Below are positions 2,600-63,216 of a stretch of 64,000 bases of DNA, piece after piece. Origin of the DNA: Pseudoxanthomonas sacheonensis (GTDB lineage: Bacteria; Pseudomonadota; Gammaproteobacteria; Xanthomonadales; Xanthomonadaceae); contig NZ_PDWS01000009.1 in NCBI RefSeq assembly GCF_010093305.1, positions 62,001 through 126,000 on the forward strand. Direction: 5' to 3'. The position numbers and the translations under genes are program-made. Below the pieces are notes generated by a model. It saw nothing but the letters and a program-made list of their open reading frames with translations. It did no database searches and was not told where the DNA came from. The stretch's first letter is position 1; each line of letters opens with the position of its first letter.

Positions 2600-2608
2600 G
2601 TCATCGGC

Positions 2609-3034
2609 TCAGCGCGAGACCACTTCGGTCGCGGCGAAGAAGTACGCCACTTCCACCGCGGCGTTCTCGACCGAATCCGAACCGTGCGCTGCGTTGGCGT
2701 CGATCGAATCGGCGAAGTCGGCGCGGATCGTGCCCGGCGCAGCGTCTTTGGGATTGGTGGCGCCGAGCAGTTCGCGATGCAGAGCGACGGCGTTCTCGCC
2801 TTCCAGCGCCTGGATCATCACCGGGCCGGAGATCATGAAGTCGACCAGCGCGTTGAAGAACGGACGTTCGCGATGCACGGCGTAGAAACCCTCGGCTTCG
2901 CGACGCGACAGCTGCTTGTACTTGGCGGCCACGATCTTCAGGCCGGCCTTTTCGAAACGCGAATAGATTTCGCCGATGACGTTCTTGGCGACGGCATCGG
3001 GTTTGACGATTGACAGGGTGCGCTCCAGCGCCAT
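2609..3034 (-). CDS. ndk: Nucleoside diphosphate kinase
   Basis: Ndk transfers the gamma phosphate from ATP to NDPs through a phosphohistidine. The 141-residue protein begins [15 protein letters not shown] and carries the active-site His117 in NAAHGSDS, plus the [14 protein letters not shown] loop; the length matches the family (about 141-143). The frame is open further upstream to 3079, but the ATG at 3034 gives the normal N-terminus and follows an AG-rich ribosome binding region. A terminator-like hairpin lies about 50 bases upstream (separate entry), so expression might be attenuated. It is the first gene of the ndk-rlmN-pilF-rodZ run. Confidence 0.97.
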
Positions 3035-3080
3035 GGATTTTCTCCGTTGGGTGGGCCACTGCGGACCCGAGATTAACATG

Positions 3081-3103
3081 AAAAACCCGCGTCGAAACGC
3101 GGG
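3081..3103 (-). terminator. Terminator-like hairpin in the ndk leader
   Basis: A perfect 7-bp stem (3086-3092 with 3097-3103) closed by a 4-base loop is followed, reading on the minus strand, by a run of five T (plus-strand AAAAA at 3081-3085). It has the form of an intrinsic terminator for minus-strand transcription but sits about 46 bases before the ndk start, with no annotated minus-strand gene behind it. A second inverted repeat (aattgcg/cgcaatt) lies at about 3113-3129. It is either an attenuator in the ndk leader or the end of a short minus-strand RNA. Confidence 0.55.
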
Positions 3104-3212
3104 CTTAGGCTAAATTGCGTAGCGCAATTCTAACGTATCGGCGGCATATTTGCAGCGGCTCCGCACTCTCGATGCGGCAGTGCAGCATGACTTTCGAAGG
3201 GGTCGAGCCCAG

Positions 3213-3232
3213 AATCAAACAAGCGTTTGATT
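3213..3232. promoter_or_regulatory. Predicted PsrA operator
   Basis: A perfect palindrome aatcaaac-aagc-gtttgatt ends 12 bases before the ATG of the TetR-family gene at 3245. Its core CAAAC-N4-GTTTG fits the G/CAAAC-N2-4-GTTTG/C box known for Pseudomonas PsrA, a fatty-acid-responsive repressor of the fad genes. The position suggests autoregulation and, by read-through, control of fadB and fadA. The motif is seen directly; binding is inferred. Confidence 0.72.
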
Positions 3233-3244
3233 GCCGAGAGCCTG

Positions 3245-3871
3245 ATGGCCAACACCACCCATTTTTCAACCAAGGACCGGATCCTCGGCGCCGCCGAGGA
3301 ACTGTTCGCCCAGCATGGCTTCGCCGGCACCTCGTTGCGTCAGGTGACCAGTCGCGCCGACGTCAATATTGCCGCGGTCAACTACCACTTCGGCTCGAAG
3401 GAGAACCTGGTCAACGAGGTCTTCCGCCGGCGCATGGACGACATGACCCTGCTGCGCCTGCGCCAGCTGAAAACAGCCTTGGAACAGCATCCCGGCGAGT
3501 TGCAGCCCATACTGGCCGCGTTCGTGGAGCCCGCCCTGGCCATGTCACAAGACCGTCATGGCGGCGGCGCGTTCGTGCGCGTGGTGGCGCGTGCCTACGC
3601 CGAAAAGAACGATGGCCTGCGCAAGTTCCTCTCCGACCACTACGGCCACGTGCTGCGCGAATTCGGCAAGGCGATCGCCGGTTGCGTTCCCGGCCTGAGC
3701 AAGGAAGAGCTGTACTGGCGGCTCGACTTCCTGGCCGGCGCGCTTACCTACGCCATGGCCGACTTCGGCCTGATCAAGCGTCCCGCCGATGTCACCGAAG
3801 CGGCGCACCGTGAGCGCGCCGCACGCGAACTCATCCGTTTCGCCGAGGCCGGCATCCGCGCCGACCACTGA
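3245..3871 (+). CDS. psrA: TetR-family regulator, PsrA/FadR-like
   Basis: This is a 208-residue TetR-type repressor. The N-terminal HTH includes DRILGAAEELFAQHGF, SLRQVTSRADV and NIAAVNYHFGSKENL, the last strikingly close to PsrA. The C-terminal ligand-binding domain (about residues 75-200) contains LSKEELYWRLDFLAGAL, similar to PsrA's ligand region. An in-frame TTG at 3227 lies inside the operator palindrome, so the ATG at 3245 is preferred. It is followed after 34 bases by fadB, suggesting a psrA-fadB-fadA operon de-repressed by long-chain fatty acids or their CoA esters. The TetR family call is certain; the PsrA assignment rests on sequence resemblance, the operator and the neighbours. Confidence 0.85.
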   Translation: MANTTHFSTKDRILGAAEELFAQHGFAGTSLRQVTSRADVNIAAVNYHFGSKENLVNEVFRRRMDDMTLLRLRQLKTALEQHPGELQPILAAFVEPALAMSQDRHGGGAFVRVVARAYAEKNDGLRKFLSDHYGHVLREFGKAIAGCVPGLSKEELYWRLDFLAGALTYAMADFGLIKRPADVTEAAHRERAARELIRFAEAGIRADH

Positions 3872-3905
3872 ATTATTTCATCATATAAACAAGGATTTAT
3901 AGAAC

Positions 3906-6278
3906 ATGTCTAATAAGTTGCTTGTACGCAAAGCGGCCGTACTCGGCGCCGGTGTGATGGGGGCGCAGATCGCCGCGCACCTGACCAATGCCGGCGTGGA
4001 CACGGTGCTGTTCGACCTGCCCGCCAAGGAAGGGAATCCGGACGGCGTGGTGCTGAAGGCCATCGCCAACCTGGGCAAGCTCAGCCCCGCCCCGCTCGCC
4101 AGCAAGTCGCTGGCCGAGGCCATCACGTCCGCCAACTACGACAGCGGGCTCGAACAACTGCGCGGCTGCGACCTGATCATCGAGGCCATTGCCGAGCGCA
4201 TGGACTGGAAGCAGGACCTGTACAAGAAGATCGCTCCGTTCGTGGCCGACCATGCCGTGCTGGCCAGCAACACTTCCGGCCTGGGCATCAATGCTCTTTC
4301 CGATGTGCTGCCGGAACAGCTGCGCCACCGCTTCTGCGGCGTGCATTTCTTCAACCCGCCGCGTTACATGCATCTGGCCGAACTGATCCCGACCAAGGTC
4401 ACCGACACGGCGGTGCTGGAAGGCCTGGAAGGCTTCCTGGTCACCACCCTGGGCAAGGGCGTGGTCTACGCCAAGGACACACCCAACTTCATCGGCAACC
4501 GCATCGGCGTGTTCTCCATCCTGGCCAGCATCCACCACACCGCCGAATTCGGCCTGGGCTTCGATGAAGTGGATGCCGTAAGCGGCCCGCTGATCGGCCG
4601 TCCCAAATCGGCGACCTACCGCACCTCCGACGTTGTAGGCCTGGACACCATGGCCCATGTCATCAAGACCATGGGCGACACCCTGCCCGACGATCCCTGG
4701 CACAAGTACTTCGCCGCGCCCAAGTGGCTGGAGGCGCTGATCGCCAAGGGCGCGCTGGGACAGAAGACCGGCGCCGGCATCTTCCGCAAGGTCGGCAAGG
4801 ACATCGTGGTGCTGGACCTCAAGGCCCAGGACTACCGCCCGTCCACCGGCGTCGCCGCACCGGAAGTCGTCGAGATCCTCAAGCTCAAGAACCCGGCGGA
4901 AAAGTTCGCCAAGCTGCGGGAAAGCCAGCATCCGCAGGCGCAATTCCTGTGGGCCACCTTCCGCGACCTGTTCCACTACAGCGCCTACCACCTGGCCGAT
5001 ATCGCCGAAACCGCGCGCGATGTCGATCTGGCCATCCGTTGGGGCTACGGCTGGTCGCTGGGCCCGTTCGAGACCTGGCAGGCCGCCGGCTGGAAGCAGG
5101 TGGCGCAGTGGATCGCCGACGACATCGTGGCCGGCAAGGCCATGAGTTCGGCGCCGCTGCCCAATTGGGTGTTCGACGGCCGCGAAGGCGTGCATGCGGC
5201 CGAGGGCAGCTACAGCCCCGTCAAGAACGCCAAGCTGCCGCGTTCCGCCCTGCCCGTCTACCAGCGCCAGCGTTTCCCGGATCCGCTGCTGGGCGAAAAA
5301 TTCCCCGCGGGCGAAACCGTGTTCGAAAACGACGGCCTGCGCATGTGGACCGACGGCGACGGTATCGCCGTGGTCGGTTTCAAGACCAAGATGAACACCG
5401 TCAACGACCACGTGCTCAACGGCCTGCAGGAAGCGGTAGCCCGCGCGGAGAAGGACTTCAAAGGATTGGTGCTGTGGCAGAACAGCGAACCGTTCTCCGC
5501 CGGCGCCGATCTTTCCGGCGCCATGGGTCTGCTGCAGGCCGGCAACGTGGCCGGATTCGAGGCCATGGTCGCCAACTTCCAGGCCACCAGCCAGCGCATC
5601 AAGTATTCGCTGGTGCCGGTGGTGGCCGCAGTGCGCGGCCTTGCGCTGGGCGGCGGTTGCGAATTCCAGATGCATAGCGCCAAAACGGTGGCCGGACTGG
5701 AAAGCTACGTCGGCCTGGTCGAGGCCGGTGTCGGCCTGCTGCCTGCCGGCGGCGGCTTGAAGGAAATCGCGGTGCGCGCTTCGCAGGCCGCAGGTCCCGG
5801 CGGCGATGTGTTCGCCGAGCTGAAGAAAACCTTCGAGACCGTGGCGATGGCCAAGGTTTCGGCTTCGGCGATGGAAGCGCAGGAACTGGGCCTGGTGCGC
5901 AAGACCGACAGGATCGTGTTCAACGCCTTCGAACTGCTGTACGTGGCCAAACAGGAAGCGCTGGCCCTGGCCGAAAGCGGCTATCGCCCGCCCCTGCCGG
6001 CGCGCCGCATCCAGGTCGCCGGCGATGTCGGCATCGCCACTTTCAAGATGATGCTGGTCAACATGCTGGAAGGCCGCTTCATCAGCGAATACGACTACGA
6101 GATCGCCGTGCGCATCGCCACCGTACTGTGCGGCGGCGCGGTGGATCGCGGATCGCTGGTCGACGAGGAATGGTTGCTCAGACTCGAGCGCCAGCACTTC
6201 GTGGAACTGGCGCAACAGGAAAAGACCCAGGCGCGCATCGGCCACATGCTGAAGACCGGCAAGCCGCTTAGAAACTGA
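3906..6278 (+). CDS. fadB: 3-hydroxyacyl-CoA dehydrogenase / enoyl-CoA hydratase (FadB/FadN type)
   Basis: This bifunctional beta-oxidation enzyme hydrates trans-2-enoyl-CoA and oxidises 3-hydroxyacyl-CoA with NAD. The 790-residue protein begins with the Rossmann NAD-binding site (AVLGAGVMGAQIAAHL, residues 10-25), then 3-hydroxyacyl-CoA dehydrogenase regions (FFNPPRYMHLAELI, NFIGNRIG), and the crotonase domain is at the C-terminus (about 470-720: SAGADLSGA, GLALGGGCEF oxyanion-loop motifs, and GLLPAGGG). This order is opposite to E. coli FadB (crotonase first) and like Bacillus FadN. An AAGGA ribosome site lies about 12 bases upstream. fadA follows after 95 bases that hold a repeat. Co-regulation with psrA is inferred. 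Confidence 0.93.
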   Translation: MSNKLLVRKAAVLGAGVMGAQIAAHLTNAGVDTVLFDLPAKEGNPDGVVLKAIANLGKLSPAPLASKSLAEAITSANYDSGLEQLRGCDLIIEAIAERMDWKQDLYKKIAPFVADHAVLASNTSGLGINALSDVLPEQLRHRFCGVHFFNPPRYMHLAELIPTKVTDTAVLEGLEGFLVTTLGKGVVYAKDTPNFIGNRIGVFSILASIHHTAEFGLGFDEVDAVSGPLIGRPKSATYRTSDVVGLDTMAHVIKTMGDTLPDDPWHKYFAAPKWLEALIAKGALGQKTGAGIFRKVGKDIVVLDLKAQDYRPSTGVAAPEVVEILKLKNPAEKFAKLRESQHPQAQFLWATFRDLFHYSAYHLADIAETARDVDLAIRWGYGWSLGPFETWQAAGWKQVAQWIADDIVAGKAMSSAPLPNWVFDGREGVHAAEGSYSPVKNAKLPRSALPVYQRQRFPDPLLGEKFPAGETVFENDGLRMWTDGDGIAVVGFKTKMNTVNDHVLNGLQEAVARAEKDFKGLVLWQNSEPFSAGADLSGAMGLLQAGNVAGFEAMVANFQATSQRIKYSLVPVVAAVRGLALGGGCEFQMHSAKTVAGLESYVGLVEAGVGLLPAGGGLKEIAVRASQAAGPGGDVFAELKKTFETVAMAKVSASAMEAQELGLVRKTDRIVFNAFELLYVAKQEALALAESGYRPPLPARRIQVAGDVGIATFKMMLVNMLEGRFISEYDYEIAVRIATVLCGGAVDRGSLVDEEWLLRLERQHFVELAQQEKTQARIGHMLKTGKPLRN

Positions 6279-6373
6279 GATTCGGGAAACGGGATTCGGG
6301 ATTCGTGAAAGCGAAGCCCGAATCCCTGCACTACCGAATCCCCAATCTCGAATCTCGAATTCCGGAGTTATCC
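6279..6373. repeat. Palindromic repeat between fadB and fadA
   Basis: The spacer is built of variations on GGGATTCG and its complement. The core is a perfect 10-bp inverted repeat (6291-6300 with 6317-6326) enclosing a second 4-bp helix, and copies of CGAATCTCGAAT follow up to 6360. This resembles dispersed REP-like elements of xanthomonads. It lies inside the fadBA transcript and could stabilise the upstream mRNA. The fadA ribosome site (ggag, 6364-6367) is immediately after it. Confidence 0.7.
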
Positions 6374-7579
6374 ATGAGCAAACAGATCCAGGAAGCCTAC
6401 ATCGTCACCGCCACCCGCACCCCGGTGGGCAAGGCGCCGAAAGGCGTATTCCGCAACACCCGTCCCGACGACATGCTGGCGCACGTGCTCAAGGCCGTGG
6501 TCGCCCAGGCGCCGGGCATCGACGTCGGCCGCATCGACGACGCCATCATCGGCTGCGCCATGCCCGAGGGCGAGCAAGGCATGAACGTGGCGCGCATCGG
6601 TCTGTTGCTGGCCGGCCTGCCCAACACCATCGCCGCGCAAACCATCAACCGCTTCTGCTCGTCGGGCCTGCAGGCCGTGGCGCTTGCGGCCGACCAGATC
6701 CGCCTGGGCAACGCCGACCTCATGCTGGCCGGCGGCACCGAGTCGATGTCGATGGTGCCGATGATGGGCAACAAGATCGCCATGGCGCCCAGCGTGTTCG
6801 ACAACGACCACGTGGCCATCGCCTACGGCATGGGCATCACCGCCGAAAAAGTGGCAGAAGAATGGAAGGTGTCGCGCGAAGACCAGGACGCCTTCGCCCT
6901 GGCCTCGCACCAGAAGGCCATCGCCGCGATGCAGGCGGGCGAGTTCCGCAGCGAAATCACGCCTTATGAAGTGATGTCGCATGTACCCGATCTGGCCGGC
7001 AACACCATCCAGCTGCGCAAGCTGCTGGTGGAGAACGACGAAGGTCCGCGCCCGGACACCACGCTGGAAGGCCTGGCCAAGCTGCGCACCGTGTTCCGCA
7101 ATCCCCAGTTCGGTGGCACCGTGACCGCCGGTACTTCGTCGCAGATGAGCGACGGCGCCGCGGGCGTGCTGCTGGCTTCGGAACAGGCGATCAAGGACTA
7201 CGGCCTGACTCCATTGGCGAGATTCGTGTCCTTCTCGGTCGCCGGCGTGCGCCCGGAAGTGATGGGTATCGGTCCTATCGCCGCGATTCCGAAAGCGTTG
7301 AAGCAGGCGGGCATCACCCAGGATCAGTTGGACTGGATCGAATTGAACGAAGCCTTCGCGGCCCAGGCGCTGGCGGTGATCCGCGATGTCGGCCTGGATC
7401 CGTCCAAGGTCAACCCGCTGGGCGGCGCCATCGCGCTCGGCCATCCGCTGGGCGCTACCGGCGCGATCCGCACCGCCACGCTCGTCCACGGCATGCGCCG
7501 CCGCCAGCAGAAGTACGGCATGGTGACCATGTGCATCGGCACCGGCATGGGCGCGGCGGGCGTGTTCGAAGCGCTTTAA
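6374..7579 (+). CDS. fadA: Acetyl-CoA C-acyltransferase (3-ketoacyl-CoA thiolase)
   Basis: The thiolase performs the last beta-oxidation step, splitting 3-ketoacyl-CoA into acetyl-CoA and a shortened acyl-CoA. The 401-residue protein has the nucleophile Cys95 (NRFCSSGLQAV), His357 in GHPLGATGA and the acid/base Cys387 in CIGTGMGAAG. Length is typical. The frame is open upstream to 6305, but the ATG at 6374 has a ggag ribosome site and gives the normal N-terminus (MSKQIQEAYIVTATRTP). It is the last gene of the operon and is followed by a strong terminator. Confidence 0.96.
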   Translation: MSKQIQEAYIVTATRTPVGKAPKGVFRNTRPDDMLAHVLKAVVAQAPGIDVGRIDDAIIGCAMPEGEQGMNVARIGLLLAGLPNTIAAQTINRFCSSGLQAVALAADQIRLGNADLMLAGGTESMSMVPMMGNKIAMAPSVFDNDHVAIAYGMGITAEKVAEEWKVSREDQDAFALASHQKAIAAMQAGEFRSEITPYEVMSHVPDLAGNTIQLRKLLVENDEGPRPDTTLEGLAKLRTVFRNPQFGGTVTAGTSSQMSDGAAGVLLASEQAIKDYGLTPLARFVSFSVAGVRPEVMGIGPIAAIPKALKQAGITQDQLDWIELNEAFAAQALAVIRDVGLDPSKVNPLGGAIALGHPLGATGAIRTATLVHGMRRRQQKYGMVTMCIGTGMGAAGVFEAL

Positions 7580-7601
7580 GCCGGTATTTCCGCCAGACCA
7601 G

Positions 7602-7628
7602 AAAGGGCAGCCATTGGCTGCCCTTTTT
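7602..7628 (+). terminator. Intrinsic terminator of the fad operon
   Basis: An 11-bp stem (aaagggcagcc at 7602-7612 with ggctgcccttt at 7616-7626), a 3-base loop and a T-run lie 23 bases after the fadA stop. The A-run on the left side makes it potentially bidirectional, also ending galU transcription. Confidence 0.88.
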
Positions 7629-7629
7629 C

Positions 7630-7695
7630 GTAGGTCGGGGCTACGTCCCCGATGCGTGAATCTCCGGCCGTCGGCCGCGTAGGGCCGACCTGCGA
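7630..7695. repeat. REP-like element, GTAGGTCGGGG family (degenerate pair)
   Basis: The left arm 7630-7652 (gtaggtcggggctacgtccc and onward) matches arms at 44222-44302 and 60265-60330. The right arm, 7671-7694, is an imperfect inverted copy (ccgcgtagggccgacctgcg). Like the other members it sits in the space between convergent genes. Confidence 0.72.
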
Positions 7696-7756
7696 AATTT
7701 CACAACACCCCAAGGAGCTTTCCAGGACGCCGGAACGGGTCGCGATTTCCAACTCG

Positions 7757-8656
7757 TTATTCCAATTCGGTGACGCCGAGCTCTTTGAGCGCGTTTTGCA
7801 TCAACTGTTGCGCCGCATCGCTCAGTTTCTCGTGGTCCAGCGCATAACGGATGGTGGCCTCGATCAGGCCGATGTGCGTGCCGCAGTCGAAACGCGTGCC
7901 GCGAAAACGGTAGGCGTGGACGGGGTGCTCGGCCAGCAGTGCCGCGATCGCATCGGTCAGCTGGATCTCGCCGCCCGCACCGGGCGTGGTGCTTTCCAGC
8001 AGATCGAAAATGCGCGCGCTCAGCACATAACGGCCGACCACCGCCAGAGTGCTGGGCGCCGTCTCGGGACTGGGCTTTTCGACGATGGCCGAAATACGGC
8101 CCTCGCGGCCCGAGAACGTCTCGGTCGCCACTATGCCGTAGCTGCCGGTCTGATCGCGCGGCACGTCCTGCACCGCGATCACGCTGGCGCCGGAAGATTC
8201 GGCGGCATCGGCCATCTGTTTGAGCGCGCCCGGACCCCGGTTCCAGATCAGATCGTCGGGAAGCAATACCGCGAAAGGTTCGTTGCCCACGATAGGCTTC
8301 GCGCAAAGCACAGCGTGCCCCAATCCCAACGCCTCGGCCTGAGTGACGAACACCGCGCGCACGTGGCTGGGCAACACGTTGCGCACCAGTTCCAGCTGCT
8401 CCAGCTTGCCTGCCTGTTCAAGCTTCTGCTCCAGCTCGTAGGCTTTGTCGAAATAGTCGGCCACCGCATGCTTGTAGCGGTTGGTCACGAAAATCAGCGT
8501 ATCGCAGCCCGCTTCCACCGCCTCGTCCACGGCGTACTGGATCAGCGGCTTGTCGATGATCGGCAGCATCTCCTTGGGGACGGTCTTGGTGGCGGGCAGG
8601 AAGCGGGTTCCAAGGCCTGCGACGGGGAAAACGGCTTTCCTGATACGTTGACTCAT
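7757..8656 (-). CDS. galU: UTP-glucose-1-phosphate uridylyltransferase
   Basis: GalU makes UDP-glucose for lipopolysaccharide, exopolysaccharide and osmoprotectant synthesis. The 299-residue protein has the nucleotidyltransferase signature near the start ([20 protein letters not shown]), [15 protein letters not shown], and the [19 protein letters not shown] and LPDDLI segments; length matches bacterial GalU. The start overlaps the stop of the upstream nucleotide-sugar dehydratase by 4 bases, so it is the terminal gene of a surface-polysaccharide block. A fad-side terminator lies downstream. Confidence 0.96.
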
Positions 8657-10563
8657 CGGGTATGTCTGGCTTCTCGTGCGGGGAACTGGACGATAGTGGC
8701 GCCGGCGTCGCCGCTCTGCCCCGACGGAGAAAATTCGGGTATCGCCGCGCGCAGGATGCGCGAAAGCTCGTCGTTATCGTAATTCGCCACCGCGGTCTGC
8801 AGCAGGAAGACCGCGCGCGCGATGATTTCCGCCGAAGCATCGCGCGCGCGCGCTTCGAGAATCTTGGAATGCGAAGTGGGCCGGTAGAGTTCGTCCGCGT
8901 GAAACAGCGTTTCATGCAGCTTTTCGCCCGGGCGCAGGCCCGTATAGGCGATCGCGATGTCCTTGCCGGGCTGTTTTCCTGCCAGACGGATCATCTGCTC
9001 GGCCAATACCCTAATCGGCACCGGCTCGCCCATGTCCAACGTGTAGATGGAAGCGTGGGCGGCGCTGGCGGCCGCTTGTACGATCAGCTGGCAGGCTTCC
9101 GGGATGGTCATGAAATAGCGCGTGACCTCCGGATCGGTGACGGTGACCGGACCGCCGAGCCTGATCTGCTCGCGGAACAGAGGCACCACGCTCCCCGCCG
9201 AATCCAGCACATTGCCGAAACGGACGGTCACGAACCTCGTCGAAACGCGGTCGTCCAGGGTCTGGCAAACCATTTCGGCCAAGCGCTTGGTCGCGCCGAG
9301 CACGTTGACCGGATCGACGGCCTTGTCGGTGGAGATGAAGACGAAGGTCGCCACGTTCGCCTCGCGGCAGGCCCGCGCCACGACTTCGGTCGCCAACACG
9401 TTGTTGCGCACCGCTTCGCGCAATTGCTGTTCCAGAAGCGGGACTTGCTTGTAGGCGGCGGCGTGGAAAACCGCGTCCGGTTCGGCGATCTTCAACGCAT
9501 GCTGGATGACCGCCGGGTCGCCGCAGTTGCCCAATACGGAAATGATCTCCAGATCGGGAAATGCGCGATGCAACTCCGTCTGGGCCGTGACCAGCGCCAG
9601 CTCATCGACTTCCAGCAGGGTGATCCGGCTCGCGCCATGGCGCGCGCATTGCCGGCACAGCTCCGAACCGATCGAGCCGCCGGCGCCGGTGACCAGGACG
9701 GTGCGCCCGCCCAGCCAGCCGCGAATGAGTTTCCAGTCCGGAGTGACCGGCTTGCGGCCCAGCAAGTCGTCGATGGCGACTTCCTTCAGTTCGCCGGGCA
9801 GCGAACGGCCTTCCAGCACGTCCACCAGTCTGGGCACGGTGCGGAATGGCAGGCCGGTGCTCTCGCAGATGGCCACCACCCGCTGCATGCTCGCAGCATC
9901 CATGGACGGCATCGCTATGACGATGAGTTTGGCGGCGGTTTCCTTGGCGATGGCGGGCGCATCGGACAATCCGCCGAGCACGGGAACGCCGTGCAGTTTG
10001 GTGCCCTGCAGGCGGGCCGAATCGTCCAGCAGGCCGACCGGCTGATAGGCGCCGCTGCGCCGCAGGTCGCGCACCAGGGCTTCGCTGGACCTGCCCGCAC
10101 CGAGTATGAGCACCCGCAGGGCTATGCCGTTCTTGCTGTCCGCGTTCTGGTTGTCCTTCCAGGCCCGGAACATGAGGCGCGGCATGCCCAGCAGGCCGAC
10201 CAGCAGGAACGGATACATCACCAGCACGGCGCGCGGCACCGATCCTAGCCGGTTGTAGAGAGCCAGCCCCAAGGCAAGGGCAAGCAAGCCTACCAGGCTG
10301 GCCTTGAGGATATTGCCCAGATCCGGAACGCTGGCGAAGCGCCAGAGCCCGCGATAAAGACCGACCCACCAGAACACCAGTCCCTGCGCGACCACGACTA
10401 TCGCGATCTCGGGCGACCACAGGGGATATGAAGGGGGGTTTGGCAGCATTGCATAGCGCAGACGATGCAGCGCTTCCCAACACAGCCAGACCATCAGCAG
10501 ATCGTGCCCCACCACCATCGAACGGGGCACCAGGGCAGCCATTTTTCCGCGCCAGGAATTCAC
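8653..10563 (-). CDS. WbpM/CapD-type membrane nucleoside-diphosphate-sugar 4,6-dehydratase
   Basis: This 636-residue protein has four predicted N-terminal membrane helices (to about residue 130), a CoA-binding-like domain starting at [17 protein letters not shown], and a C-terminal SDR domain with [13 protein letters not shown] (about residue 290), [13 protein letters not shown] and [18 protein letters not shown]. That is the WbpM/FlaA1 layout: UDP-GlcNAc C4,C6-dehydration at the start of 6-deoxy-amino-sugar synthesis for O-antigen. It overlaps both neighbours by 4 bases. Pairing with the WecA-like transferase upstream matches the wbpL-wbpM end of Pseudomonas O-antigen loci. The exact sugar is not readable from sequence. 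Confidence 0.9.
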
Positions 10564-13494: not shown

Positions 13495-15183
<1,689 letters not shown>

Positions 15184-15360
15184 TGAATAAATCTCGGTTG
15201 ATGACGCAGACCGGGCACTGGTTGGATGTGCGGCGGTCCACCCGTTGTCGGCCTGGGCGGGATGCCTGTGACCGTGAGTGTTGTGGTGGATGAACCGCCG
15301 GGAGGATTCCCGACGGGGCTGGTTTTGTTGCGTTGTCCGCTACGCTGGATCCGGCTGGAC
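15184..15360 (-). promoter_or_regulatory. rpsA leader / cmk-rpsA spacer
   Basis: This 177-base spacer holds no gene. On the minus strand it contains an interrupted inverted repeat (cggcggt ... accgccg and ccacc ... gggtgg, about 15229-15304) and ends in the SD-poor rpsA start. A structured S1-autoregulatory leader with its own promoter is plausible but only inferred. Confidence 0.35.
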
Positions 15361-16032
15361 TCAGGATTTCACCAAGGCCAGCACGCGCTCCACGACCTGA
15401 TCGATGTTCAGGCCGGTGGTATCGATGAGGACGGCGTCTTCGGCCGGCCTCAACGGCGCCACCGTGCGCTGGGCATCACGGGCGTCGCGGGCGAGAATCT
15501 CGCGTAGCAGACCGTCTATTGTGACCGAAACCCCTTTGTCTTTCAACTGGTTATAGCGCCTTTCCGCTCTTTCCTCGGCGCTGGCGGTCAGGAAAACCTT
15601 GTAGGGGGCGTCCTTGAAGATGACCGTCCCCATGTCCCGCCCGTCGGCCACCAGCCCGGGAGGCTGCCGGAAAGCACGCTGGCGCTCCTTCAGCGCTGAA
15701 CGGACCTCGGGAAAGGCGGCTATGGCCGAGGCTACCGCGCCCGTGGTCTCGAGCCTGAGCTCGTCGGTGGCATCGGAGTCGTTGACCCAGACCCGCAGGT
15801 CGCCCTGGGCGTTCTCCTTGAAGCTGACCTCGGTGTCGAAAGTGCAGCGCACCAGGGCCGCGGGGTCGGAAATGTCCAGGTTGGCCCAGCTCGCCGCCAC
15901 GCCCACCGCACGGTACAAGGCGCCGGAATCGAGGTAATGCCAGCCCAGGCGGGCCGCGGCGATACGGCTTACCGTGCCTTTGCCGGCGCCGGAGGGGCCG
16001 TCGATGGTCAGAACCGGAATATTGTCGGACAT
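15361..16032 (-). CDS. cmk: Cytidylate kinase
   Basis: Cmk phosphorylates CMP and dCMP. The 223-residue protein has the P-loop [11 protein letters not shown] (residues 12-22), the [11 protein letters not shown] nucleoside site and [10 protein letters not shown]. The frame is open upstream to 16215, but the ATG at 16032 yields the family's usual start ([15 protein letters not shown]). Its position upstream of rpsA is the conserved arrangement. Confidence 0.97.
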
Positions 16033-16143: not shown

Positions 16144-16232
16144 GCGCGGCTTGATTTTTGTCCCGGCCGGACCACTGGTCCGCTCCGGCCACATTCCCAG
16201 ACAGTTACAGTCCAAATTTCCCGAGGTATGTC

Positions 16233-16358
16233 ATGAAAGTCCTTTCCTCCCTGAAGTCGGCAAAGACCCGTCATCGCGACTGCAAGGTGGTCCGCCGCCG
16301 TGGCAAGGTCTTCGTGATCTGCAAGTCGAACCCGCGTTTCAAGGCGCGTCAGCGCTGA
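16233..16358 (+). CDS. rpmJ: 50S ribosomal protein L36, non-zinc (YkgO-like) form
   Basis: This is a 41-residue basic protein, [17 protein letters not shown] followed by KVVRRRG and [15 protein letters not shown]. It has only two cysteines (17 and 30): the other zinc ligands of canonical L36 are His14 and Phe36 here, so it is the zinc-independent type, as in Xanthomonas. The ATG at 16233 has a gagg ribosome site; the longer in-frame TTG start at 16158 is not credible. It is monocistronic with its own promoter and terminator. Confidence 0.96.
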
Positions 16359-43352: not shown

Positions 43353-43386
43353 ATCCCGCGTGTTCGCTACAGCGAATGCGCGGGAT
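43353..43386. terminator. Bidirectional terminator-like hairpin between rne and gacA-like gene
   Basis: Arms atcccgcg (43353-43360) and cgcgggat (43379-43386) enclose an inner helix ttcgct/agcgaa. The right arm is inside the last codons of the response-regulator gene. No long T-run follows. Confidence 0.5.
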
Positions 43387-44014
43387 CCAGCAATCCGTAC
43401 TGCGCGGCCAGCCGCGCCAGTGCGATGTTGTCCTGGATACCGACCTTCTGGAACAAGCGCGTCTTGTGCGTGTTCACCGTCTTGGCGCTCAGGCTGAGGC
43501 GTTTGGCGATGTCTTCCTGCCGCAACCCCTGGATCAGCAGCATCGCCACCTCCAGTTCCCGGGGCGACAACCCGTCGAAGGGCGAGGCGCTTCCGCCCAC
43601 GTTGGAAAGCGCCATGTTCTGCGCGACATTGGTGCCCAGGTAGCGCTTGCCGCGCGCCACTTCGCGCACCGCGCGCAATAGTTCGCCGGCATCGCCGGCC
43701 TTGCCGATGTATCCGCAGGCGCCGGCTTCCAGCAGGCGTTTAGGCAGCGGGCCGTCTTCCAGCACCGACACGATGATCACCTTGGTTTCCAGATCGCCGC
43801 GGGCGATGCGCTCGGTGATTTCGAGCCCGCTCATTCCCGGAAGATGCAGATCGCACAACACCACATCGGGTTTCAGGCTGCGTATCTGGCGCAACGCGTC
43901 TTCGCCATTGTCGGCGTCGCCCACGACCTCGATGTCCACTTCGCCGGCCAATATCATTTTCATGCCGGTTCGCACCAGCGCATGATCGTCGATCAGGTAT
44001 ACGCGTATCGTCAT
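43367..44014 (-). CDS. gacA: GacA/UvrY-type response regulator
   Basis: This 215-residue NarL/FixJ regulator has a receiver domain (phospho-acceptor Asp55 in VVLCDLHLPGMSG) and a C-terminal LuxR HTH (SPRELEVAMLLIQGLRQEDI and onward). The N-terminus RVYLIDDHALVRTGM matches GacA/UvrY, which act with a BarA/GacS kinase on csr/rsm small RNAs. No partner kinase or uvrC is adjacent; UvrY is often followed by uvrC, so this location is unlike E. coli. The family is firm; GacA orthology is likely but not proven. Confidence 0.85.
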   Translation of the reverse strand: MTIRVYLIDDHALVRTGMKMILAGEVDIEVVGDADNGEDALRQIRSLKPDVVLCDLHLPGMSGLEITERIARGDLETKVIIVSVLEDGPLPKRLLEAGACGYIGKAGDAGELLRAVREVARGKRYLGTNVAQNMALSNVGGSASPFDGLSPRELEVAMLLIQGLRQEDIAKRLSLSAKTVNTHKTRLFQKVGIQDNIALARLAAQYGLLDPAHSL

Positions 44015-45553: not shown

Positions 45554-46132
45554 TCAGGCCCCGAACCACCCCTTGCCACGGGCTTCTTCGAGCCTGCTTT
45601 GCAGGTAATCCCACAATGCGGGACAGCCCATCTCGATCGGCAGCCCCACCCGAGCCACTACTCGCTCGTAACTTATCCCGTTCTCGCGCCAGCTCTGCCC
45701 TGCGTTGGCCAGGTTGAGCAATACAGGCATGGCGCGGTCGGCAGCATTGGCGAAACGGGCGTCTGCGGTTTCGCCGCTCTCGAACTCCTTCCATAGCGCC
45801 ATGAACTCCGCACCCTGCGCCTCCGGCAGCAAACCGAATATCCGCGTCACCGCAGCCAGCTCCGCGGCCTTGCGGTCTTCCCAACCGCCTTCGACGAACA
45901 CCATGGTGTCGCCGGTATCGATCTCGCCGATGTCGTGCACCAGCAGCATGCGGATCACCCGGTCGATATCGACCGCAGCTTCGGCATAGGACGCCAGCGA
46001 CGAAGCCAGCAACGCGATCTGCCAGCTGTGTTCGGCGGAATTCTCGTAGCGATCCGCATCCCGGAGACGGATCTTGCGCGTCACGGCCTTGAGCTTGTCC
46101 AGCTCTAGTATGAAATCGATGATCTGTTGCAT
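45554..46132 (-). CDS. HD-domain hydrolase (YfbR-like)
   Basis: This 192-residue HD-superfamily phosphohydrolase has the metal motif H...HD...D: SAEHSWQIALLAS, LLVHDIGEIDTGD (HD pair), and a downstream AADRAMP. It is most similar in layout to 5'-deoxynucleotidase YfbR and related HD nucleotidases. The ATG at 46132 was preferred over one 39 codons upstream, since those upstream codons run toward the tRNA-derived repeat. It is co-directional with the DUF418 gene and is the last core gene before the tRNA-Ser island. Confidence 0.85.
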   Translation of the reverse strand: MQQIIDFILELDKLKAVTRKIRLRDADRYENSAEHSWQIALLASSLASYAEAAVDIDRVIRMLLVHDIGEIDTGDTMVFVEGGWEDRKAAELAAVTRIFGLLPEAQGAEFMALWKEFESGETADARFANAADRAMPVLLNLANAGQSWRENGISYERVVARVGLPIEMGCPALWDYLQSRLEEARGKGWFGA

Positions 46133-46206
46133 GCCGTGGCTCGTCTGAAGGGAATCCGATCCTGTCAGCGCAAGACGCTCGACTAGTAGCGTGGCGATCC
46201 ATGCAT

Positions 46207-46266
46207 TGGCAGAGAGAGTGTGGGATTCGAGCCCACGGTGGTATCGCAATCACGTCGGTTTTTAAG
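46207..46266 (-). other. att-like degenerate copy of tRNA-Ser 3' half
   Basis: This 60-base segment matches 48258-48315 (3' end with CCA, acceptor strand, T arm, variable arm and anticodon-stem side) with a 2-base insertion and about seven substitutions. Both copies are in the same orientation. It lacks the 5' half, so it is not a functional tRNA. Confidence 0.82.
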
Positions 46267-46449
46267 TGAAAATATTCATACTTTTCAGTATCTTACATCA
46301 CATCTCCACACCACCCCACCCAATAAAACCAGCTGATTTACACCTGCACACGAATCGCCCCAAGTGCCGCAGATTGGGAGCGTTTTGCCAAATTTGTCCC
46401 AGGAATGCGCAAAGCGTACCCTCTTAGCTGGAAGTAAGGGGGACGGTCT
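46267..46449. promoter_or_regulatory. AT-rich spacer between the att copy and the first island gene
   Basis: The region has a tgaaaa/ttttca inverted repeat (46268-46288) and is AT-rich at the start, in contrast to the core. An aagggggac ribosome site lies at about 46434-46442. It likely holds the promoter of the island genes; no additional gene is seen. Confidence 0.35.
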
Positions 46450-47100
46450 ATGGCAGTGAACTTGGTGAGGGACTGCCCGCATTGCGGCGTAGCAAATTCT
46501 TCGTTCAACCATTTGGCGACCCGCACGCACCCAGGGGCGAGAGAAGCGACCGCTGTGTTCACATGCAACCGTTGCTCGGAAGCCCGTTGCGTTTCCATGA
46601 AGACAGGTGGGAGCGACATGTCCTGGATCAGCTCCCAAGTGGGGGATTTTGATATCGGAATGCAGCAAAGTCATCATTGGCGAATTCACTTGGAGTATCC
46701 CGAAGCCAAAGCAGTTACCGCCCCAGAACATATTTCTGCAGCAGTGCGGCGTTGCTTTTTGCAAGCGGGGGAAGCGGCCCTTCGGAATCACTTTGACGCG
46801 GCGGGGTCAATGTATCGAAAATCAATAGATCTTGCGACTAAAGAGCTTGATATCAACTTGGCTGGCAAGCTTCTTTTCCAGCGAATCAACGCACTTCACG
46901 CTGCCGGCAAGTTGACCGATGACCTAAAAGAATGGGCCCACCAGGTGCGTCTTGACGGGAATGACGCTACCCATGAGGAGGAGGAGCTTACAGCAGACGA
47001 CATCAAGACCCTTGCAAGCTTTTCGGAACTTTTCTTGACCTACACCTTTACCCTACCCCGCAAGATAGCAGTGCTCAAAGCTACTGAAGACATGGGATGA
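46450..47100 (+). CDS. Zinc-ribbon / DUF4145 domain protein (island gene)
   Basis: The 216-residue protein has an N-terminal zinc-ribbon-like part (CPHCG at residues 9-13 and CNRCS near 39-43) and a C-terminal DUF4145 domain: LRNHFDAAGSMYRKSIDLAT, LFQRINALHAAGKLTDDLKEW, QVRLDGNDATHEEEELTADD (the HEE-like motif). DUF4145 proteins occur as domains in restriction, toxin-like and defence-associated genes, and as standalone proteins; no activity is established. The start follows a strong AAGGGGG site. It is 22 bases upstream of the next gene. Codon use and GC are unlike the core. Confidence 0.85.
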   Translation: MAVNLVRDCPHCGVANSSFNHLATRTHPGAREATAVFTCNRCSEARCVSMKTGGSDMSWISSQVGDFDIGMQQSHHWRIHLEYPEAKAVTAPEHISAAVRRCFLQAGEAALRNHFDAAGSMYRKSIDLATKELDINLAGKLLFQRINALHAAGKLTDDLKEWAHQVRLDGNDATHEEEELTADDIKTLASFSELFLTYTFTLPRKIAVLKATEDMG

Positions 47101-47122
47101 GGGGAAAGGGGCATAGAAGCCA

Positions 47123-47836
47123 ATGGATTCCATGGAATTTCCCAAGCTAATCTGTGGCTTTAATCCAGCCAGCCCAGTGCTGGCTCTCAGGGCGCAACGC
47201 TCTCAGGTGCTTCACTCCAGCCACACCATCGAGCTACTGCGACTCCCCCAACCAAAAACACTGCGACTCAGCGTCGCATCCAACGCTATAGTATTGGCTG
47301 CTGAGCATCACGGCGCGATCGCACTGCTGATATCCCAGGCTCATTACTCAACGGCCCACGCTTTGATGAGGCCCTTAGTCGAAACAACGATGCGCGCGCT
47401 TTGGCTGACATATCTGGCCTCATTCACTGCAGTAGACGAACTTACGACGCGTCCTAGTGGGCCTGACCTAGATCGCATATGCCGCTATTTCGTAAAGGCA
47501 AAGCTACAAGGTCTGACGCCGATCGCGGAAGCAGTGCTGAAACAAGGAAATATGTTTCACAGCTTCGCGCACGCCGGCATTGAACAGCTAGTAAGGCGGC
47601 TACGAGGCTATCGGGAAGAAGAAGTTCTAGCTGCCCTTCTTATAGCGGACGTATTTGCCTCTGTCGCAATTGCGAACGCAGCCATAATCTTTGACGATAC
47701 TAAATTGCATCAGCTTACCGAGATGAACGGGCATCCATTGGCAATGGAGAGTCACTACTACTTTCGCGGTCCTCTACCAGAACCGGGTTGGACGGGTACG
47801 CTGCCGGCGATGCCGAACTGGAATGATCCGAAATAA
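47123..47836 (+). CDS. DUF6988-like hypothetical protein (island gene)
   Basis: This 237-residue mostly helical protein has the pattern LAAEHHGAIALLISQAHYST-AHALMRPLVETTMRALWLTY and FHSFAHAGIEQLVRRLRGY, which looks like the DUF6988/DUF5677 group of unknown function. There are no membrane helices strong enough to call and no catalytic motif I can name. It follows the DUF4145 gene by 22 bases with a weak ribosome site (agaag), so the two are probably a unit. Base composition is lower in GC than the core. Confidence 0.72.
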   Translation: MDSMEFPKLICGFNPASPVLALRAQRSQVLHSSHTIELLRLPQPKTLRLSVASNAIVLAAEHHGAIALLISQAHYSTAHALMRPLVETTMRALWLTYLASFTAVDELTTRPSGPDLDRICRYFVKAKLQGLTPIAEAVLKQGNMFHSFAHAGIEQLVRRLRGYREEEVLAALLIADVFASVAIANAAIIFDDTKLHQLTEMNGHPLAMESHYYFRGPLPEPGWTGTLPAMPNWNDPK

Positions 47837-48007
47837 AGAAAGATCCAGAGAAGCATCTGGATAGCGAGTAATGGCCACAATCCTGTCTTGATCTGTGTGT
47901 ATCGAACGACGGCCAGTAACCCACACCACTCCACCACCACCCATCCGCAAACATCACGATGGATAGCAAAGTCCTCCCTACCCTTGCTGTCTGGGAGTCG
48001 CGTCACG

Positions 48008-48178
48008 TTAGGAATCGGATTCCTCGCCCGTGTCGATCTTATGCTCAATGCCAGGCGCCCATTCTTCGGCGTCGATTTTCCGCGGGGAGGATTTGGTTGG
48101 CGGCGGCCCCGACAGTCGGCGCACGCGTACGCGCCAAGTCGTGCCGTTCTTACCAACGCGCTTCTCGATGGTGGCCAA
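48008..48178 (-). pseudogene. Truncated site-specific integrase N-terminus (remnant)
   Basis: On the minus strand, a frame beginning with TTG at 48178 and ending at TAA 48008 encodes 56 residues: MATIEKRVGKNGTTWRVRVR, then RLSGPPP, then KIDAEEWAPGIEHKIDTGEE. That matches the N-terminal arm-binding region of tyrosine integrases (GTTxRVxVRRxG...DAExWAxxIExxID-G). Nothing of the catalytic domain follows in any frame. Its position immediately beside the tRNA-Ser 3' end is where an island integrase would sit. The rest of 47837-48257 shows no gene I can support; longer antisense frames there look accidental. Confidence 0.72.
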
Positions 48179-48257
48179 CTCTCAGTATCCCCAATTGTCC
48201 CAACTGGAACAGACACTGGGCCGACTTTAGGAAGAAATCAAGCAAAAATAAGGGTTT

Positions 48258-48347
48258 TGGCGGAGAGAGTGGGATTCGAACCCACGGTGGTATCGCTACC
48301 ACGCCGGTTTTCAAGACCGGTGCCTTAAACCGCTCGGCCATCTCTCC
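48258..48347 (-). tRNA. tRNA-Ser (anticodon UGA)
   Basis: The 90-base sequence, with encoded CCA, folds as a class II tRNA: 7-bp acceptor stem GGAGAGA/UCUCUCC, D arm, anticodon loop CUUGAAA (UGA reads UCA codons), a long variable arm and the T arm GGGUUCGAAUCCC. The minus-strand 3' end points to the island. Confidence 0.97.
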
Positions 48348-48414
48348 GAAGCTGCTGGTGCAAGCGGCCCGTTGCGGGCCGCGCGGCATTTTCCCATGAA
48401 GCGGGCTGGCTTGC

Positions 48415-49401
48415 CTACGACGCCTTCTTGACCTTGATCTGGGGCAGGTCTTTGCCGTCCGCGGATTCTTCGCACTTGCCGCCGCAATCCAGACGCGAGG
48501 ACTCGATCTCCTTGGGCAGATGCTCGGCCAGGAAATCGATGAACACCCGCACGGCCGGCAGCATGCCGCGGCGCGAGGCGAACACGGCGTGGCAGATGCC
48601 CTGCGGCAAGGTCCAGTCGCGCAACACCACTTCCAGCTCGCCTTTGCGCACCGATTCGGCGCACACCGTCTCCGGCAGCAGAGTGATGCCGAAACCATCC
48701 TTGGCCATCGACTGCAGCAGCGGAAAGTCGAAACCCGAAAGCCGCGGCTGGATATCCACCCGGACGATATCGCCGTCCGGACCATGCAGCTCCCAACGCT
48801 GGCGCGCTTCGTCCTCGCTGGTGCTGAGGGTCACGTGATCGGTGAGCTCGTCAGGATTCTTGGGCCGGCCCGCACGTGCCAGATATTTGGGGCTGGCGAC
48901 CATCAACTGACGGATCTGGCCGAAACTGCGCATGACCAGGCTGCCGTCGTCGTCCAGCTTGGCGCGCACGCGCAGCGCCACGTCGTAGCCTTCGTTGATC
49001 AAGTCCACGCGGCGGTTGCTGACGTGCAGCTGCAGGCGGACCTTGGGGTACTTGTCCAGGAAGGCCGGCAGGATCTTCGGCAATTGCGTCTGCGCCACTT
49101 CCACCGGCACGCTGACGCGCACCACCCCGCGCGGCTCGGCGCTCAGACGGTCCACCACTTCGCGGGCGGCCTGTGCCTCGGCCAGCATGGTCTGCGCGTG
49201 GCGGTGCACGCTCATGCCCACGTCGGTGACCGCGAAGCGGCGCGTGGAGCGCTGCAGCAGGCGCACGCCCATGTCGGTTTCCAACTGACTGATGCGCCGG
49301 CTCAGGCGCGACTTGGGAATGCCCAATGCGCGCTCGGCCGCCGCGAAACCACCATGGTCCACGACCATGGCGAAGTAATAGAGGTCATTCAGATCCTGCA
49401 T
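48415..49401 (-). CDS. LysR-family transcriptional regulator
   Basis: This 328-residue LysR regulator has an N-terminal HTH (LNDLYYFAMVVDHGGFAAAE, then RALGIPKSRLSRRISQLET) and a periplasmic-binding-like effector domain. It belongs to the CrgA/DsdC-like class. It diverges from azoR with 117 bases of shared, AT-rich promoter DNA, so azoR is the likely target. The C-terminus (residues 300-328) is Lys/Ser-rich and unlike the fold core. Confidence 0.9.
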   Translation of the reverse strand: MQDLNDLYYFAMVVDHGGFAAAERALGIPKSRLSRRISQLETDMGVRLLQRSTRRFAVTDVGMSVHRHAQTMLAEAQAAREVVDRLSAEPRGVVRVSVPVEVAQTQLPKILPAFLDKYPKVRLQLHVSNRRVDLINEGYDVALRVRAKLDDDGSLVMRSFGQIRQLMVASPKYLARAGRPKNPDELTDHVTLSTSEDEARQRWELHGPDGDIVRVDIQPRLSGFDFPLLQSMAKDGFGITLLPETVCAESVRKGELEVVLRDWTLPQGICHAVFASRRGMLPAVRVFIDFLAEHLPKEIESSRLDCGGKCEESADGKDLPQIKVKKAS

Positions 49402-49518
49402 GGCAATAATTCCATATTCAGAACAATTAGTGATATTTAACCATCTTTATTCCATGAATACAACAATCTACTTTGGCATCCAACGCGGCGCCGCCGCTTC
49501 CTGAAGTGGATAGCCAAC

Positions 49519-50153: not shown

Positions 50154-50177
50154 GATGAGTACGTTGAATTCCGAATC

Positions 50178-50296
50178 GTCATCCCAGCGAAAGCTGGGAT
50201 CCATCTTGATCCTGACCTTGATCTGATTTGCGCAAGACGGAAAACAGCAAAGACAAAAGCAAAGTCAAAATGGATCCCAGCTTTCGCTGGGATGAC
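50178..50296. repeat. REP-like pair, GTCATCCCAGCG family
   Basis: Left arm gtcatcccagcgaaagctgg and onward (50178-50204) and right arm atggatcccagctttcgctg and onward (to 50296) are perfect inverted copies around about 65 bases. A related pair is at 51662-51743. It lies between azoR and convergent serS. Confidence 0.88.
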
Positions 50297-50326
50297 GTCG
50301 CTCTTTTTTTTGTGTCGGCTGGACGA

Positions 50327-63148: not shown

Positions 63149-63216
63149 AGCCCGCCAGTCCACTCGAAGTACGTATGCTCCCCTCCCCTTACGACTTCGG
63201 ACTGGCGGGCTTTTTC
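63149..63216 (+). ncRNA. Candidate small RNA or long terminator with C-rich loop
   Basis: A 13-bp perfect stem (agcccgccagtcc 63149-63161 with ggactggcgggct 63199-63211) is followed by a TTTTT run. The inner loop has a shorter helix (cgaagt/acttcg) and an apical stretch cccctcccc (63180-63188), the complement of a Shine-Dalgarno sequence. A TATAAA (63125 region) upstream could be a -10. C-rich apical loops are a hallmark of some sRNAs that block ribosome sites (xanthomonad sX13 type). Alternatively it terminates the phasin transcript. Spacer 63072-63291 otherwise shows no gene. Confidence 0.4.

What the first reader, a model, noticed from the sequence alone, without database searches (positions are those of the whole stretch)
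46207..48347. Decayed tRNA-Ser island with an integrase fragment and att-like repeat
A 60-base degenerate copy of the tRNA-Ser(UGA) 3' half (46207-46266) is in direct orientation with the intact tRNA (48258-48347). A 56-residue integrase N-terminal fragment (48008-48178) lies right by the tRNA, and only two foreign-looking genes remain. This is the footprint of an integrative element reduced to its cargo. The two repeats have drifted, suggesting long residence and possible retention of the cargo by selection.
Basis: partly seen in the sequence, partly recalled or inferred. Interest (0 to 1): 0.75.

Follow-up and report, generated by a model that had tools for sequence, protein, structure and literature searches.

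The report
Decayed tRNA-Ser island keeping two genes
A mobile DNA element once inserted itself into a serine tRNA gene and has since lost most of its machinery, but two genes that resemble known or suspected anti-phage genes are still intact; this is a clear case of a familiar kind of event.

Summary
Confirmed. Window 46206-46266 is a drifted direct copy (52 of 59 paired bases plus a 2-base insertion) of the 3' part of tRNA-Ser(UGA), 48257-48315. Three results make it an attachment-site pair. (1) The nearest relative held, G029, has an exact empty site. (2) The integrase fragment is 70-75% identical to the start of a full-length integrase in another genus (G062), beside the same tRNA-Ser and LysR genes, in a 10-kb phage-like element whose 58-base repeat starts at the same tRNA position, 33. 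(3) A second, out-of-frame integrase piece lies beside the first: internal deletion, and the catalytic part is lost. The surviving cargo is a zinc-ribbon/DUF4145 (HEPN-like) gene with relatives in phages, and a DUF6988 gene of a family newly implicated in phage defence. The two did not occur together in the other loci examined. Retention by selection is plausible, not proved: chance of no stop codon 0.8% at the observed drift, 14% at its lower bound. The same tRNA borders conflict-type genes in a few relatives, among many ordinary ones. New member of a known kind; the defence role is inferred.

The parts
48258..48347 (-). intact tRNA-Ser(UGA); its 3' part (48257-48315, tRNA position 33 to the 3' end) is the attachment site on the integrase side
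   Evidence: identical over 91 bases to the tRNA of the empty site in G029
46206..46266 (-). far attachment site: drifted copy of the tRNA 3' part in the same orientation
   Evidence: 52 of 59 paired bases, 2-base insertion; in G029 the left flank runs straight into the single tRNA here
46267..48256 (.). residual element between the two sites, 1990 bases, 53.0% GC
   Evidence: absent from G029 at this place; GC
48011..48178 (-). integrase remnant A: matches residues 5-61 of the G062 integrase; starts 80 bases from the tRNA 3' end
   Evidence: spacing of relatives
47968..48024 (-). integrase remnant B: matches residues 163-181 of the G062 integrase, in a different frame from A (internal deletion of about 0.3 kb); the part matching the PF00589 catalytic domain is gone
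   Evidence: 14 of 19 identical, E = 1e-6; DNA 82% over 45 bases; PF00589 lies at residues 181-339 in G062
46450..47100 (+). cargo gene 1: 216 aa, N-terminal CxxC...CxxC zinc ribbon and C-terminal DUF4145 (HEPN-like) domain
   Evidence: PF13643 E = 3.2e-14, 53.2 bits against cut-off 23.1; phrog_1305 E = 1.5e-38; model pLDDT 81.9, top-ranked PDB neighbours are HEPN domains, none at E <= 0.001
47123..47836 (+). cargo gene 2: 237 aa, DUF6988, starting 22 bases after gene 1 on the same strand
   Evidence: PF22491 E = 1.5e-18, 67.7 bits against cut-off 27; PADLOC PDC-S52 E = 2.3e-17

Best explanation
An integrative element (most likely a prophage or phage satellite) carrying a tyrosine integrase entered the chromosome by recombination within the 3' part of tRNA-Ser(UGA), between position 33 (anticodon loop) and the 3' end. 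The element brought its own copy of that part, so the tRNA beside the integrase stayed whole. The host's original 3' part was pushed about 2 kb away and has drifted since. The integrase then lost its middle and its catalytic part, and any replication or structural genes went, so the island can no longer move by itself. Two adjacent genes remain open: a zinc-ribbon/DUF4145 HEPN-like protein (probably an RNase-type growth-arrest or abortive-infection effector) and a DUF6988 protein. Both most likely act as anti-phage cargo that the cell has kept. Shown: insertion site, empty site, integrase identity, loss of the integrase, intact cargo frames, Pfam membership. Inferred: that the element was a phage or satellite, that the cargo defends against phage, and that selection kept it.
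For: Repeat. Exact empty site in G029: window 45554-46266 and 48257-49500 map to 828081-828791 and 828733-829976 of one contig, overlapping by 59 bases, with a tRNA identical to the window's over 91 bases. G062, another genus: LysR, tRNA-Ser(UGA) and a 353-aa integrase 67 bases on, in an element ending at a 58-base perfect copy of the tRNA 3' part about 10 kb away; it also encodes an AAA_25 ATPase of replication type and a phage capsid protein. Its repeat and the window's both begin at tRNA position 33. 17 of 30 loci with relatives of that integrase, G062 among the 17, have a tRNA 67-242 bases upstream on the same strand; the window's remnant starts 80 bases away. Gene 1 relatives occur in annotated phages and viral contigs. 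Family matches. HEPN-like model. In passages read, DUF4145 is assigned to the HEPN superfamily (PMC3710099), a candidate PICI at a tRNA-Leu carries a DUF4145 gene at its end (PMC10465359), and DUF6988 is listed among domains newly implicated in validated defence systems (PMC13092281).
Against: Besides the integrase pieces no phage replication or structural gene is left, and the gaps between the parts (183, 22 and 131 bases) have no room for one, so the class of the element is unknown. The two cargo genes have no convincing counterpart in the G062 element, so this cargo was not seen with this integrase elsewhere. Apart from G062, no close relative of the fragment appeared in 198 family genomes (next best 43-45% identity). 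No phage assay exists for these two genes. The spacing of the HEPN motif is R-x7-H, one longer than the usual R-x4-6-H (motif recalled), and the R is K in 2 of 8 relatives. The match to PD-T7-4 is weak (E = 4.3e-5). The best Foldseek match has E = 0.016. The selection estimate is not significant at the lower bound of the drift.
Confidence: 0.85

Rival explanations
1. The left copy is a partial duplication of the tRNA gene by ordinary recombination, and the two genes arrived independently without an integrase.
For: Partial copies of this tRNA do occur in the genus: G001 has a copy of the 3' part 81 bases away, and G030 has two copies of the 5' half.
Against: Integrase remnants lie at the expected spot and strand; G029 shows a precise empty site; G062 has the same repeat boundary at the ends of an element with a whole integrase.
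Confidence: 0.05
2. The integrase element and the cargo are of different origin: the element came first and decayed, and the two genes were inserted later into its remains.
For: Gene 1 relatives occur in phages; three viral-contig scans with a gene 2 profile or two of its relatives found none; the two genes did not occur together elsewhere.
Against: The repeat search found no second repeat pair inside, none of the frames searched is a transposase, and the whole interval is missing as one unit in G029.
Confidence: 0.2
3. The two genes are intact by chance, with no selection to keep them.
For: At the lower 95% bound of the drift (0.049 per site) the chance that neither gene gains a stop codon is 0.14.
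Against: At the observed drift (7 of 59) it is 0.008, and at the per-lineage 4-fold divergence 0.044, counting substitutions only; the integrase beside them is broken.
Confidence: 0.3
4. Gene 1 and gene 2 form one two-gene system, not two independent genes (compatible with the best explanation).
For: Same strand, 22 bases apart, both of families linked to phage defence.
Against: No co-occurrence in 25 other DUF6988 loci or 13 other gene 1 loci (flanks about 1.5 kb for whole-genome loci, up to 5-6 kb for the rest; some of these loci overlap or are the same place).
Confidence: 0.15

Closest known systems
10-kb phage-like element in G062 (L091:1532-11738), at the same tRNA-Ser(UGA) beside LysR
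   Same: same tRNA, same neighbouring gene, 70-75% identical integrase start, repeat beginning at the same tRNA position
   Different: whole integrase, replication-type ATPase, capsid gene, perfect 58-base repeat; none of the window's cargo
Phage satellites in tRNA genes, such as the candidate PICI of M. abscessus GD01 at tRNA-Leu with a DUF4145 gene at its end (PMC10465359, passages read)
   Same: tRNA site with attL and attR, DUF4145 gene at one end
   Different: the window keeps no satellite or phage gene besides integrase pieces
PD-T7-4, an E. coli defence gene that often overlaps an integrase gene (PMC9519451, passages read)
   Same: similar length, weak profile match, association with integrase genes
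   Different: E = 4.3e-5 only; no overlap with an integrase here; membership not established
DUF6988 / PADLOC candidate PDC-S52
   Same: gene 2 passes the Pfam cut-off and matches PDC-S52 over residues 25-196
   Different: best relatives found are 37% identical; no functional test of this branch
tRNA-located defence hotspots of E. coli (PMC10121019, passages read)
   Same: tRNA sites occupied by different elements with defence genes in different strains
   Different: another bacterial family and a decayed remnant; enrichment was not tested here

Membership tests
tRNA-integrated element of a tyrosine recombinase | direct repeat of the tRNA 3' part at the far end | tested here: met
tRNA-integrated element of a tyrosine recombinase | empty site in a close relative, with one attachment site | tested here: met
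tRNA-integrated element of a tyrosine recombinase | integrase gene next to the intact tRNA | tested here: met
   as two broken pieces only; spacing as in relatives
tRNA-integrated element of a tyrosine recombinase | catalytic domain present (able to move) | tested here: not met
   the region of PF00589 has no match in the window segment; it is a remnant
PICI or other phage satellite | satellite replication, regulation or packaging genes | tested here: not met
   none among the frames searched between the repeats and no room for more; a satellite origin is still possible
HEPN superfamily, DUF4145 | match above the Pfam gathering score | tested here: met
   53.2 bits against 23.1
HEPN superfamily, DUF4145 | R-x4-6-H motif (recalled) | tested here: inconclusive
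   R167-x7-H175; N171 and H175 invariant in 8 of 8, R is K in 2 of 8
HEPN superfamily, DUF4145 | RNase activity | not testable with these tools
   needs an assay
DUF6988 | match above the Pfam gathering score | tested here: met
   67.7 bits against 27
PD-T7-4 | strong full-length match | tested here: inconclusive
   21.1 bits, profile positions 15-168 of 211

The most novel reading that the evidence does not exclude
The DUF4145 and DUF6988 genes are one undescribed two-gene anti-phage module (an RNase-type effector plus a partner), delivered by a tRNA-Ser element and kept after the element died; and the tRNA-Ser(UGA) gene of this genus is a recurrent landing site whose elements lose their integrase and leave conflict genes behind (G034, G016 and G003 show outlines of this).
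Probability: 0.12. Interest if true: 0.55.

Novelty: new member of a known kind. Interest (0 to 1): 0.4.

Why it matters
It is a well-controlled example of a mobile element that died while its cargo stayed open, with an exact empty site in a sister species and a fuller relative at the same tRNA in another genus. It names two testable candidate defence genes from poorly studied families (DUF4145 with a zinc ribbon, and DUF6988) and a tRNA-Ser site worth mining across the genus.

Tried and rejected
Pfam, PHROGs and NCBIfam searches of the 56-aa integrase piece alone found nothing; only the whole-genome protein search linked it. A fold of gene 2 from a single sequence was useless (mean pLDDT 38.0) and was not searched. 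The profile of gene 2 had no PDB match up to E = 1; that of gene 1 had one weak match, a DUF4145 chain at E = 0.024. Viral-contig scans for gene 2 relatives found none; the genome-contig scan with gene 1 found 2 loci. An integrase scan of the relatives' tRNA flanks was flawed: some queries were antisense frames of LysR, and it missed an integrase of another subfamily beside the tRNA in G016, found later. The listing of the genus-wide PF00589 search was cut, so absence of integrases near the tRNA in relatives is not claimed. PADLOC was run on 20 of the 229 frames picked from the tRNA-side intervals of 36 relatives, chosen mainly for length, so no enrichment is claimed. The promoter and terminator scan (2 promoter-like sites against 1.3 expected, 6 terminator-like against 2.5 with sd 1.9) was not used. 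No paper in the library held contains the term PDC-S52 (no bioRxiv preprints are held).

Full report
What was checked. The window lies at G000:C44:62001-126000 of a 4.04-Mb draft genome. The tRNA-Ser(UGA) is at 48258-48347 on the minus strand. The left copy, 46206-46266, aligns to 48257-48315 in the same orientation with 52 of 59 paired bases identical and one 2-base insertion. Segments holding it score 43 against the tRNA, and the best segment elsewhere in the window on either strand scores 18. The copy covers the tRNA from position 33, in the anticodon loop, to the 3' end. A repeat search of 46150-48420 shows this pair and nothing else of note.

Empty site. In a search of the 38 genomes of the genus, own included, the nearest relative G029 matches the window from 45554 to 46266 and again from 48257 to 49500, on overlapping stretches of one contig. 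A separate alignment over 6.5 kb in all gave 93.4% and 93.2% identity on the two sides, again breaking at 46266 and 48257. The overlap is one attachment site. The G029 tRNA is identical to the window's over 91 bases. The segment between the repeats has no DNA match in the tRNA-side stretches held for 36 relatives of the genus (L055-L090; G011 not included); the one hit among the 37 loci compared was the integrase end of G062. Parsimony favours a gain on the window's lineage, but a loss in G029 by precise excision cannot be excluded.

The integrase. The 56-aa piece matched 20 of 198 family genomes at E <= 0.01, own included; the best other match is G062, another genus, 75% identical, E = 7.1e-19, in a 370-aa open frame, and the next have 43-45% identity. 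In G062 the order is LysR, tRNA-Ser(UGA), integrase, and the tRNA 3' part is repeated as a perfect 58-base copy about 10 kb away, starting at tRNA position 33 as in the window. That element encodes a tyrosine integrase (PF00589, E = 3.7e-31; phrog_1, 2e-73), an AAA_25 ATPase (1.8e-40) and a capsid protein (PF05065, 2.1e-48); six other frames tried had no Pfam match up to E = 0.01. Against its integrase the window shows two pieces: residues 5-61 at 48011-48178 and residues 163-181 at 47968-48024, in different frames; DNA similarity also runs through the tRNA (332 columns, 72.6%). So the gene lost about 0.3 kb inside and the catalytic part. The G062 integrase matched 33 of 297 family genomes at E <= 1e-30, own included through a different gene elsewhere in the genome. 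Of the 30 loci delivered (L114-L143), 17 have a tRNA 67-242 bases upstream on the same strand: Ser, Thr, Leu, Met, Val, Lys, Ala or Phe; 13 do not. In the window the distance is 80 bases.

Age. Between G000 and G029, 211 of 1506 four-fold sites in seven flanking genes differ (0.140), about 0.08 per lineage. The left copy has 7 of 59. If it had drifted freely for the whole time since the split one would expect 4.6 changes; 7 or more has probability 0.18. So the insertion is roughly as old as the split, with a wide error.

Cargo gene 1. 46450-47100 encodes 216 aa with two CxxC pairs (invariant in 8 of 8 aligned sequences) and a DUF4145 domain. DUF4145 is placed in the HEPN superfamily (PMC3710099, passages). 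A model from seven sequences reached pLDDT 81.9; its top-ranked PDB neighbours are HEPN proteins, among them 2hsb at rmsd 2.3 over 107 columns, though none passes E = 0.001. Relatives are rare in the family (6 of 297 genomes at E <= 1e-6, own included). They occur in 5 of 50,697 phage records and in 4 viral contigs, three of them 48-50% identical. In the two annotated phages opened, the gene lies on the strand opposite to most of its neighbours: in one next to a HigB/HigA pair between recombination and replication genes, in the other, unannotated, between lysis and terminase genes. That is the usual position of phage accessory genes (recalled). PADLOC gives a weak PD-T7-4 match.

Cargo gene 2. 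47123-47836 encodes 237 aa, DUF6988 and PADLOC candidate PDC-S52. It is sporadic: 12 of 297 family genomes by protein search at E <= 1e-6 and 9 of 369 class genomes by the Pfam model, own included in both. Two plasmid records of Xanthomonas campestris CN05, perhaps the same plasmid, carry a 33% identical relative, in the one opened about 4 kb from an integrase gene. DUF6988 is named among five DUFs newly implicated in defence by validated systems in PMC13092281 (passages); which system carries it was not seen.

Are they a pair? They are 22 bases apart on one strand. A profile of gene 1 found no relative of it in 25 other DUF6988 loci, and a profile of gene 2 none in 13 other gene 1 loci. Among the 25, L163 was not recognised by my gene 2 profile, L096 has a broken gene, and L159/L162 and L105/L107 overlap; among the 13, L110 and L147 are the same place. 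So the pair is not a recurring module in what was examined.

Selection. With substitutions alone at 7 per 59 sites, 4.8 stop codons would be expected in the two genes and the chance of none is 0.008; at the per-lineage four-fold rate it is 0.044; at the lower 95% bound of the drift it is 0.14. This points to retention without proving it.

The site in relatives. LysR lies beside this tRNA in all 37 relatives' loci and in G062. In 28 of 36 relatives the response-regulator gene (window 43367-44014) lies on the other side, at 78 bases to 15.7 kb, so the interval varies greatly (in 8 of 36 no such gene was in the stretch fetched; G011 was left out because its contig ends there). PADLOC hits at E <= 1e-6 came for 4 of 20 long frames scanned: a 1890-aa PDC-S37/Hhe-like protein in G034, a Dsr1-like frame covering the second half of that profile in G016, a PDC-M37B/DolB-like protein in G020, and a weak type III restriction match in G001; 16 of 20 had none. 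Pfam on 10 frames added an Abi_C/HEPN gene in G034, a 489-aa integrase beside the tRNA in G016, and a 1287-aa TPR and PIN protein of the TPR-GreAB-C type in G003 (its conflict role is recalled). The same call gave ordinary or mobile genes in others: cytochrome b561 in G008, a methyltransferase in G014, a transposase in G026, and no match for three frames besides. In G034 a 21-base copy of the tRNA 3' end follows the 1890-aa gene. These are examples, not a test of enrichment.

Verdict. It is a decayed tRNA-Ser integrative element that keeps two probable defence genes, a new member of a known kind. No call names the organism; its family includes G177, whose gene 1 relative is the same sequence as that of a Stenotrophomonas pennii contig.

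Noticed in passing
L069 (G030) about 16156-16322; single copies in G001, G003, G007, G012, G023, G036: The 5' half of the same tRNA-Ser, ending near the anticodon loop, is repeated upstream of the gene; in G030 two copies at 129-base spacing. It mirrors the 3'-part repeats and is unexplained.
   Followed up: partly
L072 (G001), just beyond the tRNA 3' end: A second copy of the tRNA 3' part (54 bases, 100%) 81 bases from the intact one, with the same AT-rich flank repeated; an N in between means an assembly fault is possible.
   Followed up: partly
L082 (G034) 1283-8683: tRNA-Ser, Abi_C/HEPN gene, 1890-aa PDC-S37/Hhe-like gene, then a 21-base tRNA 3'-end copy: perhaps a second conflict-gene island at the same tRNA; no integrase among the frames examined.
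   Followed up: partly
L068 (G016) 14075-15544 and 8178-9944: A 489-aa DUF6538/Phage_integrase gene right beside the tRNA-Ser and a partial Dsr1-like frame about 4 kb on.
   Followed up: partly
window 50177-50209 and 50265-50297: Two 33-base stretches that are inverted copies of each other, seen as cross-matches with G029; probably a dispersed intergenic repeat.
   Followed up: no
window 63165-63213: Rfam match to sX5, a Xanthomonadaceae sRNA (55.1 bits).
   Followed up: no
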